Source of the DNA: Alphaproteobacteria bacterium
Lineage (GTDB): Bacteria; Pseudomonadota; Alphaproteobacteria; RF32; UBA3637
Length of the DNA stretch: 9,417 nt
Direction: 5' to 3'
NCBI GenBank assembly: GCA_017632555.1
Contig: JAGBRF010000132.1
Coordinates: 1 to 9,417, forward strand
In this document: positions 1 to 1,592 of the stretch, one piece after another
Position numbering within the stretch: the first letter of the stretch is position 1
Layout of the letters: each line of letters begins with the position of its first letter
Notes under the pieces: generated by a model
Database searches by the model: none
What the model was told of the DNA's origin: nothing
Seen by the model: the letters and a program-made list of their open reading frames with translations, nothing else
Translations under genes and position numbers: made by a program

Positions 1-1249
1 CTTCATGAACACACGCCGAACGCAAAGCGCCACCGACAACACTTCGGCGCAAACGACAATCCGCCAAAGTGCATTCTTGACCAAACGTGCAAGCATTTTT
101 ACAAACCGCCGCCAACAAAGTATCAACAAAATGCCCTTGGAAAAAAGATATTCCCACAGTGCGACCGAAAACCAAAGCATCTTCTGAACCGCAACGCGAT
201 AAAATAACTTTCTTGTCACGCTGTTCTTTCAAAAACTTTTTTAATGGGTCTTTGTAATCGGTCCATTTTGATGACCAAAAGATTTTGTAACAATCCACAT
301 CAAACGGTGCCATCGGAATAAATTCAAATTCGTTTACACCGATTGCATCCAAAGCGATTAAAACACCGGCTTGTTTCAATTTTGCACTGGCTTTACGAAA
401 TAATGCCAAATCATGCAAAATATCGGATATTTGAAATTCAATCATTAAATGCGAACGCATTGTTGACAACATTTTATCGAATATCGGCAAGAAAACACTT
501 TGCACATTCAAATTGATACTGATAATAGGCGGAAATGCTTTCAAATTCAAATCACACAAAGATGATAACATTTGGCGATCCAACTTATCCATCAACATCG
601 TAAATAATGCTTTATCGGCCGTCAAATTCAAATGTGGCGCATACGCATTTTGCAATTCCATCAGGGAAGTAAAAAATTCTTGTGCGATTTCTTCGTTTTT
701 TCCGTTTTCTTTTAAAGAAATAATTGTTTGCCGGCGAATAAAATCTTTGCTTTTATTTTGTTCAATCTGATAAAGCAATTTTTCCAAAATATCCGGTGAT
801 AATTCTTGTGTCATCGGTGTTGCCGGTGCGCTTTCGGGAACAATGTCTTGTTCTTTTGCTGCTTGGGGTTGCAACAAGTCTATCAAAGCATTTTTATCCC
901 GATCTAAAAAGAAAATTTGTTGGAAACCTTCGCCGGAACGGGAAGAAATGAAAAAATCGTCCGAAAACAACCCCTTGATTTGGTACAAAATATCATCGAT
1001 AGCATCCAACACCGGATTGGCCGTCAACAACAAAAAATCATGATTGGAAAGCAAAAACAAACGTGCTTGCGCATGATTTAATAACGGTTCAAACATTTTT
1101 GAAACAATTTCCAATTGACGATACCCGCGATTTTCGGGTTGCAATTTTGACATAGCCACATAAACAGCGCAAAAAGGCACTCCCAACTGTTCAACCCGTT
1201 GGATTGCTTCTATTGCTTGTTCTTCAGGCGACAAAATTTTCTTTTGCAT
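1..1249 (-). CDS. Degenerate GGDEF-EAL-like protein, 3' end off the window
   Basis: An open frame runs from ATG at 1249 to the left edge: 416 codons without a stop, C-terminus missing. The start has a good ribosome binding site (AAGGA, 1256-1260, six bases upstream). Residues about 28-115 resemble a GGDEF fold in which the signature is replaced by SNHDF (68-72). Residues about 190-400 resemble an EAL domain: TSL (194-196) sits where EAL is expected, followed by INLN (N246), IEF (E271), LDA (D301, A302 in place of the DD pair), YKI (K322) and FFQG (Q371). The EAL glutamate and second aspartate, needed for c-di-GMP hydrolysis in the family, are therefore lost, while several other site residues persist. 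I infer a non-catalytic c-di-GMP receptor or scaffold. No membrane segment or signal peptide is visible, so it is probably cytoplasmic. The domain calls rest on motif spacing read by eye; that the frame is a real gene is much surer. Confidence 0.7.
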   Translation of the reverse strand, partial: MQKKILSPEEQAIEAIQRVEQLGVPFCAVYVAMSKLQPENRGYRQLEIVSKMFEPLLNHAQARLFLLSNHDFLLLTANPVLDAIDDILYQIKGLFSDDFFISSRSGEGFQQIFFLDRDKNALIDLLQPQAAKEQDIVPESAPATPMTQELSPDILEKLLYQIEQNKSKDFIRRQTIISLKENGKNEEIAQEFFTSLMELQNAYAPHLNLTADKALFTMLMDKLDRQMLSSLCDLNLKAFPPIISINLNVQSVFLPIFDKMLSTMRSHLMIEFQISDILHDLALFRKASAKLKQAGVLIALDAIGVNEFEFIPMAPFDVDCYKIFWSSKWTDYKDPLKKFLKEQRDKKVILSRCGSEDALVFGRTVGISFFQGHFVDTLLAAVCKNACTFGQECTLADCRLRRSVVGGALRSACVHE

Positions 1250-1296: not shown

Positions 1297-1336
1297 GCAA
1301 AACTTTAATGAATTTGTATCGATTTTTACCGATTTG

Positions 1337-1401
1337 AAAAAAAAATCAAAAAAAATAAAAAAAATGCTTGCAATGACAAAAAAAGTATTTTAAGTTGAAA
1401 T
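1337..1401 (+). promoter_or_regulatory. Phased A-tracts (UP-like) and promoter for the tRNA-like RNA
   Basis: Three A-tracts (1337-1345, 1348-1355, 1357-1364) start 9-11 bases apart, a phasing that bends DNA and resembles an UP element. Just downstream is ATGACA (1373-1378, 5 of 6 to the -35 consensus), then 17 bases, then TGAAAT (1396-1401, 4 of 6 to the -10). That places initiation near G1407/G1408, at the 5' end of the first tRNA-like unit. Another -35 option is TTGCAA at 1368-1373. The -10 box is mediocre, so the exact hexamers are uncertain; the A-tract pattern is plain. Confidence 0.45.
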
Positions 1402-1405
1402 TATA

Positions 1406-1476
1406 AGGCAGATAGCTTAAACAGAAAAGCGGTTGACTCTTAATCAACAAATATGGGTGCGAATCCCATTCTACCG
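1406..1476 (+). ncRNA. tRNA-Lys(CUU)-like element, unit 1
   Basis: This folds as a cloverleaf. The acceptor strands 1406-1412 and 1470-1476 pair at 5 of 7 positions (C1409 opposite A1473 and A1406 opposite G1476 fail). The D stem is GCTT/AAGC (1415-1418/1427-1430), the anticodon stem GTTGA/TCAAC (1432-1436/1444-1448), and the loop CTCTTAA has CTT at 1439-1441. A four-base variable region precedes a perfect T stem ATGGG/CCCAT (1453-1457/1465-1469). The D loop AAACAGAA has no GG. The T loop TGCGAAT has G where U55 belongs. No CCA follows. The core anticodon arm matches bacterial tRNA-Lys(CUU). As a working tRNA it would lack the G18-U55 and G19-C56 elbow contacts, so I call it tRNA-like, not tRNA. 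A decaying pseudogene is the main alternative. Confidence 0.65.
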
Positions 1477-1546
1477 AAAGAGTAGCTCAAAAGCAGAGCA
1501 GTTGACTCTTAATCAGCGGATAAAGGTGCAAATCCTTTCTCTTTTT
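1476..1546 (+). ncRNA. tRNA-Lys(CUU)-like element, unit 2
   Basis: A second cloverleaf lies 69 bases downstream in register. The acceptor GAAAGAG/CTCTTTT (1476-1482/1539-1545) pairs 7 of 7 with one G-U. The D stem is GCTC/GAGC (1485-1488/1496-1499), the anticodon stem GTTGA/TCAGC (1501-1505/1513-1517), and the loop CTCTTAA has CTT at 1508-1510. The variable region is four bases and the T stem is AAAGG/CCTTT (1522-1526/1534-1538). It has the same oddities as unit 1: D loop AAAAGCA without GG, T loop TGCAAAT with G at position 55, no CCA. Its stems differ from unit 1 by paired substitutions, so the fold looks selected. G1476 serves both as the end of unit 1 and the start of unit 2, so there is no spacer for normal processing. 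An authentic but divergent tRNA-Lys is possible and is the alternative to test. Confidence 0.7.
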
Positions 1547-1577
1547 AAAAAATCCCCGTTTCAAAGCGGGGTTTTTT
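1547..1577 (+). terminator. Rho-independent terminator of the tRNA-like RNA
   Basis: A GC stem CCCCG (1554-1558) with CGGGG (1567-1571) encloses an eight-base loop and is followed by six T (1572-1577), with a run of A before it. It sits directly after the second tRNA-like unit and ends a transcript of about 170 bases. It also insulates the M23 gene downstream. Confidence 0.85.
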
Positions 1578-1592
1578 AATTGTGTTTTATCG

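What the first reader, a model, noticed from the sequence alone, without database searches (positions are those of the whole stretch)
1406..1546. Tandem tRNA-Lys(CUU)-like RNAs that keep the cloverleaf but lack the tRNA elbow
Two cloverleaf units 69 bases apart both carry an intact CTCTTAA anticodon loop, D, anticodon and T stems, and a four-base variable region. Both lack the D-loop GG and have G instead of U at T-loop position 55, and neither encodes CCA. In known tRNAs G18-U55 and G19-C56 hold the elbow; losing these contacts in both copies argues against ordinary tRNAs. In unit 2 the D-loop GC could instead pair with the T-loop GC, a possible replacement contact (inference). A tRNA-Lys-derived decoy, regulator or enzyme substrate is conceivable.
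Basis: partly seen in the sequence, partly recalled or inferred. Interest (0 to 1): 0.8.

Follow-up and report, generated by a model that had tools for sequence, protein, structure and literature searches.

The report
Chromosomal tRNA-Lys pair with swapped elbow
Two adjacent lysine tRNA genes in a rumen-type bacterium look as if they had lost the contact that bends a tRNA into its L shape, but they carry a matched replacement contact that is common in some phage tRNAs and was not seen in the bacterial tRNAs examined.

Summary
The sequence observation holds: two cloverleaf tRNA-Lys(CUU) units lie at 1406-1477 and 1476-1546, without a D-loop GG and with G at T-loop 55. The inference that the elbow is lost does not hold. 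Both units keep G19 and C56, and the 18-55 pair is changed on both sides, from G-U to A-G. In 726 viral tRNAs from contigs not chosen by D-loop, T-loop UC goes with D-loop GG (620 of 626), GC with AG (60 of 64), and rarer T-loops (UU, UA, UG, GA) carry the matching D-loop pair (16 of 16). Cellular tRNAs read the same way were GG with UC (85 of 85). In the tRNA arrays of three viral contigs almost every tRNA is switched (32 of 33, 29 of 33, 32 of 34). The window is a bacterial chromosome stretch; the nearest relative lacks the pair there and has ordinary tRNA-Lys(UUU) and (CUU) elsewhere. Best reading: captured phage-type tRNA genes, unit 2 plausibly usable, unit 1 partly decayed. A18-G55 is recalled from selected suppressor tRNAs; ten literature searches found no report of it as a natural phage class.

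The parts
1406..1477 (+). tRNA-Lys(CUU)-like unit 1; A18 at 1423, G19 at 1424, U54-G55-C56 at 1458-1460, anticodon loop CTCTTAA; acceptor stem 5 of 7 paired, discriminator A
1476..1546 (+). tRNA-Lys(CUU)-like unit 2; A18 at 1492, G19 at 1493, U54-G55-C56 at 1527-1529; acceptor stem 7 of 7 (G1-U72), discriminator U
1554..1577 (+). intrinsic-terminator-like hairpin (7 pairs, 5 G-C) with T run; 7 nt lie between unit 2 and its stem
1316..1584 (.). stretch absent from the matching gap of the nearest relative (L001): holds both units and the terminator
1368..1396 (+). weak promoter-like stretch TTGCAA-17-TAAGTT upstream of unit 1 (read by eye; the consensus scan lists no + strand site here)
   Evidence: sequence; negative; inference

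Best explanation
The two units are tRNA-Lys(CUU) genes of a phage-type class in which the elbow pair G18-U55 is replaced on both sides by A18-G55, while G19-C56, U54, A58 and purine 57 are kept. The replacement should keep D-loop and T-loop joined, so the RNA should still fold into an L; it would no longer offer U55 for pseudouridylation or G18 for 2'-O-methylation. The pair sits with its own terminator in an intergenic stretch of a bacterial chromosome and was most likely captured from a phage tRNA array. Shown: sequence, predicted folding, covariation in viral tRNAs, rarity in the cellular genomes examined, absence from the matching gap in the nearest relative. Inferred: geometry of the contact, phage origin, expression, use. 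Most likely present state: unit 2 a spare, poorly chargeable tRNA-Lys; unit 1 partly decayed.
For: Covariation, by a cloverleaf scanner of my own that puts no condition on nt 18, 19, 55 and 56. Leaving out the 74 contigs first found with a pattern that itself contains AG and TGC, 726 tRNAs on 107 contigs remain: UC with GG 620 of 626, GC with AG 60 of 64 (GG in 5 of 64), CC with GG 20 of 20, UU with GA 11 of 11, UA/UG/GA with the predicted pair 5 of 5. In all 716 of 726 have the D-loop dinucleotide predicted from nt 55-56; 1000 shuffles of T-loops gave mean 596, maximum 612. Chance level: AG occurs somewhere in the D-loop of 114 of 626 UC tRNAs, GA in 162 of 626. Counting each D-loop/T-loop combination once: GC with AG 56 of 60, UU with GA 10 of 10. 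ARAGORN on all contigs, one search's included, gives 1717 of 1740, shuffle maximum 1385. A58 is kept in 207 of 207 AG/UGC tRNAs. Cellular tRNAs: 85 of 85 GG with UC. Rarity: A18/G55 pattern in 1 of 142 relatives and 0 of 398 of the phylum; the canonical form of the pattern in 141 of 142. Gap: L001 (CysS 90% identical) matches the window on both sides but lacks 1316-1584. L001's genome has ordinary tRNA-Lys(UUU) and (CUU), GG/TTC, CCA encoded. Units 1 and 2 differ at 8 pairs on both sides with pairing kept.
Against: No close phage source: the best matches in my library are only 73% identical, to tRNA-Ile and tRNA-Asn of viral contigs that came from the AG/TGC pattern; no hit at 1e-5 in phages or plasmids. 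A loose search (E up to 10) gave partial matches to phage tRNA-Lys genes, and the tRNA-Lys(CUU) of the four records I fetched from it have the standard elbow. Nothing in the insert marks a mobile element. Unit 1 has two acceptor mismatches, the units overlap by 2 nt, no CCA is encoded, and unit 2 has discriminator U: all weigh against efficient processing and charging. The consensus scan found no promoter for the pair. Gain in the window or loss in L001 rests on one relative. The compensated differences between the units may predate capture. A local change from a host tRNA-Lys(CUU) is not excluded: cellular tRNA-Lys(CUU) of more distant relatives match unit 2 at 68%. The covariation rule for rare T-loops was framed after seeing part of the same contigs, and relatedness of the phages is not corrected for; in ten named phages, separate data, 3 of 4 tRNAs with T-loops other than UC obeyed it.
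Confidence: 0.66

Rival explanations
1. Relic: captured or duplicated tRNA genes that are now decaying and have no role (this overlaps with the best explanation on origin, and differs on present use).
For: Unit 1 acceptor mismatches, 2-nt overlap, no CCA, discriminator U in unit 2; no consensus promoter; ordinary tRNA-Lys(CUU) in the nearest relative; no copy by an exact pattern in 142 relatives.
Against: All D, anticodon and T stem pairs can form in both units, elbow positions are kept in both, and a terminator follows at once.
Confidence: 0.4
2. A non-translational tRNA-Lys mimic: decoy for a tRNA-Lys-cutting defence nuclease, or lysine donor for a non-ribosomal enzyme.
For: Two copies, intact CTCTTAA anticodon loop, poor acceptor features, extra to what a relative already has.
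Against: No nuclease or lysyl-transferase family among the 5 window proteins scanned (the others were only read as ORFs). The elbow is re-paired, not removed. No test of function was possible.
Confidence: 0.12
3. One reading: tRNA-like RNAs without an elbow.
For: No D-loop GG, G at 55.
Against: G19 and C56 kept; A18-G55 covaries in viral tRNAs.
Confidence: 0.06
4. The units arose in place from a host tRNA-Lys(CUU), with the elbow swap made locally.
For: Unit 2 shares the D-stem and most of the anticodon arm with the relative's tRNA-Lys(CUU); cellular tRNA-Lys(CUU) at 68% identity are among its 8 best library matches.
Against: The swap needs two changes with an unmatched middle state, and the type was found in 1 of 142 and 0 of 398 cellular genomes by pattern.
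Confidence: 0.2

Closest known systems
Canonical bacterial tRNA-Lys(CUU)
   Same: Cloverleaf, anticodon loop CTCTTAA, G19-C56, U54, A58
   Different: A18-G55 instead of G18-U55; no CCA; weak acceptor stem in unit 1
Suppressor tRNAs with the 'specific purine trap' selected in E. coli (Doyon et al. 2004, J Mol Biol; recalled, paper not held; two other papers of that group seen in the reference list of PMC7912444)
   Same: A18 goes with G55, G18 with U55 (as I recall the abstract)
   Different: Those were selected from a randomised library; here the pairing is natural, in viral tRNA arrays and in one chromosome
tRNA arrays of tailed phages
   Same: Mixed or nearly fully A18/G55 arrays in IMG/VR contigs; a named example is tRNA-His of Mycobacterium phage Crossroads
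   Different: The window pair is chromosomal, has no CCA and only two genes; viral AG/UGC tRNAs often encode CCA (126 of 207)
Non-elongator tRNA-Gly of staphylococcal cell-wall synthesis (recalled, not compared by any search)
   Same: As recalled, departs from GG in the D-loop and from the usual T-loop
   Different: As recalled, its D/T contact is weakened; here the contact positions are changed on both sides to a combination that recurs

Membership tests
Canonical tRNA-Lys(CUU) | Cloverleaf with CUU anticodon | tested here: met
Canonical tRNA-Lys(CUU) | Elbow pair G18-U55 | tested here: not met
   A18 and G55 in both units
Canonical tRNA-Lys(CUU) | Elbow pair G19-C56 | tested here: met
   both letters present; the contact itself is inferred
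Canonical tRNA-Lys(CUU) | Seven-pair acceptor stem | tested here: inconclusive
   unit 1: 5 of 7; unit 2: 7 of 7 with one G-U
Canonical tRNA-Lys(CUU) | Charging by LysRS and use in translation | not testable with these tools
   -
A18/G55 phage-type tRNA (class described here) | A18, G19, U54, G55, C56, A58, purine 57 | tested here: met
   both units; class
A18/G55 phage-type tRNA (class described here) | Found in a virus | tested here: not met
   Window genes look chromosomal: M23 peptidase and a methyltransferase family by Pfam; CysS, S20, glycogen phosphorylase and DnaJ by my reading of the ORFs
D/T double-helix suppressor tRNAs (Kotlova et al. 2007, recalled) | Base after G19 pairs with nt 55 | tested here: not met
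   Base after is A in unit 1, and A in 10 of 45 viral cases; unit 2 has C and could form it
tRNA-like RNA without elbow | No D-loop/T-loop pairing possible | tested here: not met

The most novel reading that the evidence does not exclude
Phages carry a natural second elbow code: nt 18-55 and 19-56 covary (G-U, A-G, G-C at 18-55; G-C, A-U, U-A, C-G at 19-56), and some phages have switched nearly their whole tRNA array to A18-G55. This would mark phage tRNAs as chemically distinct from host tRNAs (no U55 for TruB, no G18 for TrmH), so that they could escape, or be independent of, host enzymes that act on the standard elbow. The window would be a case where a bacterium has taken up such tRNAs.
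Probability: 0.35. Interest if true: 0.85.

Novelty: new variant of a known kind. Interest (0 to 1): 0.6.

Why it matters
The letters at 18, 19, 55 and 56 did not vary in the cellular tRNAs read here (85 of 85 alike), so covariation cannot show the elbow pairs there. In viral tRNAs they do vary, and together, which gives natural-sequence evidence for both contacts and shows that A18-G55 is used in many tRNAs. It makes a question testable: why a phage would re-pair the elbow of nearly its whole tRNA array, and whether the loss of U55 and G18 as modification sites is the point. The chromosomal pair in the window is a rare cellular case.

Tried and rejected
Elbow-less RNA: rejected on covariation. 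D-loop GC / T-loop GC helix as general rule: rejected, though unit 2 alone could form it. Only source of tRNA-Lys(CUU): cannot be tested in the window's own genome (not held); the nearest relative has an ordinary copy (L098). My narrow pattern and the wider one both missed that copy, so those counts (22 of 42 and 20 of 57 genomes with a match) are not evidence of absence. ARAGORN bias as cause of the coupling: tested with my own scanner, which agrees but reads the same contigs; it demands A14, U8, U33, U54, A58, G53-C61 and type I tRNAs, and found unit 2 but not unit 1. Results against a strict rule: 10 of 726 tRNAs break it (6 with T-loop UC, 4 with GC), 23 of 1740 in ARAGORN's set, and 1 of 4 in named phages (Cp1R7A-A1 tRNA-Thr). 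Six of the ten named phages I read had no T-loop other than UC besides those counted (CcrSC, Yappy, Blue7, Yvonnetastic, Alice, S-CAM7), nor did Gaia. The M23 protein found no viral relative. Gene families near the switched arrays and on other stretches explain nothing about the switch; look-ups for named kin of G143 and G145 gave no close kin. Two tRNA-like stretches in G136 (L381, L382) match the AG/TGC pattern but score only 33.3 and 32.3 bits and are not called by ARAGORN. Literature: ten full-text searches listed nothing that I recognised as a report of natural A18-G55 phage tRNAs; the library lacks most subscription papers and I read only listings for most hits. Passages seen: PMC7912444, PMC13191261, PMC4810234, PMC7162821; PMC10264068 searched for six terms with no hit.

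Full report
Observation. Both units are real cloverleaves: ARAGORN calls tRNA-Lys(ctt) at 1406-1477 and 1476-1546, Rfam gives 59.0 bits for unit 2 and 57.3 bits for unit 1 searched alone, and the cloverleaf is the minimum-free-energy fold of each, though not unusually stable against shuffles. The anticodon loop is CTCTTAA in both. D-loops are AAACAGAA and AAAAGCA, T-loops TGCGAAT and TGCAAAT. What was missed is that G19 and C56 are still there and that nt 18 is A in both units, so that position 18-55 is changed on both sides. The calls overlap by 2 nt, unit 1 has two acceptor mismatches, and unit 2 ends in discriminator U.

Is the elbow lost? The first three do not look at the D-loop. A scanner of my own, with no condition on nt 18, 19, 55 and 56, found 996 distinct tRNAs on 181 of 356 viral contigs and 85 in cellular loci. 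Taking out the contigs first found, which are circular for this question, leaves 726 tRNAs on 107 contigs: T-loop UC with D-loop GG 620 of 626; GC with AG 60 of 64, with GG in 5 of 64; CC with GG 20 of 20; UU with GA 11 of 11; UA with GU, UG with GC and GA with AU together 5 of 5. In UC tRNAs AG occurs anywhere in the D-loop in 114 of 626 and GA in 162 of 626, which is the chance level. In all, 716 of 726 obey the rule, against mean 596 and maximum 612 in 1000 shuffles; counting each D-loop/T-loop combination once, GC goes with AG in 56 of 60 and UU with GA in 10 of 10. ARAGORN on all contigs, circular ones included, gives 1717 of 1740, shuffle maximum 1385. All 85 cellular tRNAs are GG with UC. 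The rule for the rare T-loops was framed after seeing part of these tRNAs, and phage kinship is not corrected for. So 18-55 and 19-56 covary in viral tRNAs, and the window's A18-G55 with G19-C56 is one of the used combinations.

Which contact? If the T-loop GC paired antiparallel with a D-loop GC, the base after G19 should pair with G55. In T-loop GC tRNAs with one internal D-loop G, the base before it is A in 41 of 45 and the base after it is C, T or A in 19, 16 and 10. The constraint is on nt 18. This agrees with what I recall of Doyon et al. 2004, who selected suppressor tRNAs and found that purine 18 is G when 55 is U and A when 55 is G; I could not read that paper. [quoted passage not shown] A18/G55 tRNAs would lack both U55 and G18 as modification sites (inference).

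How widespread? In the array stretches read from four viral records, 32 of 33 (L531), 29 of 33 (L532), 32 of 34 (L533) and 17 of 23 (L534) tRNAs have T-loop UGC; the D-loop partner predicted for each tRNA's own T-loop is present in 32 of 33, 30 of 33, 34 of 34 and 22 of 23; in L532 and L533 the tRNA-Met(cat) genes (3 and 2) keep the standard T-loop. These records came from the AG/TGC pattern, but their other tRNAs were not chosen. The stretches hold 30 of 33, 29 of 31, 30 of 32 and 22 of 22 of the Rfam tRNA matches of the records G143 to G146, so the few tRNAs outside were not read. Tail sheath (G143), tape measure and portal (G144) proteins mark two of them as tailed phages; two proteins scanned from G145 gave no family. 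Among ten named phages, 4 of 147 tRNAs have T-loops other than UC; one, tRNA-His of Mycobacterium phage Crossroads, is A18/G55, two in Phass-1 are G18-A19 with UU, and one does not fit. In bacteria a pattern for TAGCT-type tRNAs with AG and TGC hit 1 of 142 relatives (two weak tRNA-like stretches) and 0 of 398 genomes drawn from the phylum, while the canonical form hit 141 of 142 relatives. The pattern covers one common layout only, and the two genome sets share members.

The locus. The window looks like a bacterial chromosome stretch: CysS, S20, glycogen phosphorylase and DnaJ reading frames (my reading), M23 peptidase and a methyltransferase family by Pfam. The nearest relative, a yak-rumen alphaproteobacterium (L001, CysS 90%), matches the window on both sides but lacks 1316-1584, which holds both units and the terminator. 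Two other relatives that I looked at, L002 and L003, have other genes upstream of M23, so the direction of change rests on one comparison. L001's genome holds ordinary tRNA-Lys(UUU) and tRNA-Lys(CUU) with GG, TTC and CCA. The window's own genome is not held. Lysine codons in the window's genes are mostly AAA (186 AAA, 37 AAG), so an extra CUU tRNA is not obviously needed.

What the pair does. Of 21 stem pairs, 8 differ between the units on both sides with pairing kept, 1 on one side, 2 do not pair in unit 1, and 10 are the same. This suggests that both descend from working structured RNAs, but the changes may predate their arrival here. The terminator directly after unit 2 speaks for a transcription unit; the missing consensus promoter, the acceptor faults and the discriminator speak against efficient use. 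No close source was found: best library matches 73%, and loose phage matches whose tRNA-Lys(CUU) have the standard elbow. My best reading is capture of phage-type tRNA genes, with unit 2 possibly usable and unit 1 partly decayed; a plain relic is the main rival. A decoy or regulator role has no evidence here.

Novelty. The pair itself is a rare cellular member of an unusual tRNA variant. The broader finding, natural covariation at 18-55 and 19-56 in phage tRNAs and arrays switched almost wholly to A18-G55, I did not find in print in ten searches of an open-licence library; it may exist in papers not held.

Noticed in passing
L531, L532, L533, L534 (stretches of viral records G143 to G146): tRNA arrays in which nearly all tRNAs have T-loop UGC: 32 of 33, 29 of 33, 32 of 34, 17 of 23.
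   Followed up: partly
viral tRNAs, e.g. L197, L216, L261, L407: The 19-56 pair also covaries: T-loop UU with D-loop GA in 12 of 12 over all contigs; two tRNAs change both pairs (D-loop AU with T-loop GA).
   Followed up: partly
L529 1516-1588: Mycobacterium phage Crossroads tRNA-His(gtg) carries A18/G55: a laboratory phage in which the pair could be tested.
   Followed up: partly
L381 and L382, about 1500-1560: Two tRNA-like stretches with AG/TGC and a TGG-like anticodon (my reading) in one genome bin (G136); Rfam 33.3 and 32.3 bits, not called by ARAGORN.
   Followed up: partly
L533 444-801: A tmRNA (Rfam 126.8 bits) at one end of the switched tRNA array.
   Followed up: no
window 2-1249, minus strand: Protein with a weak EAL match below Pfam's cut-off (22.1 bits against 31.3), possibly a degenerate EAL domain.
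   Followed up: no
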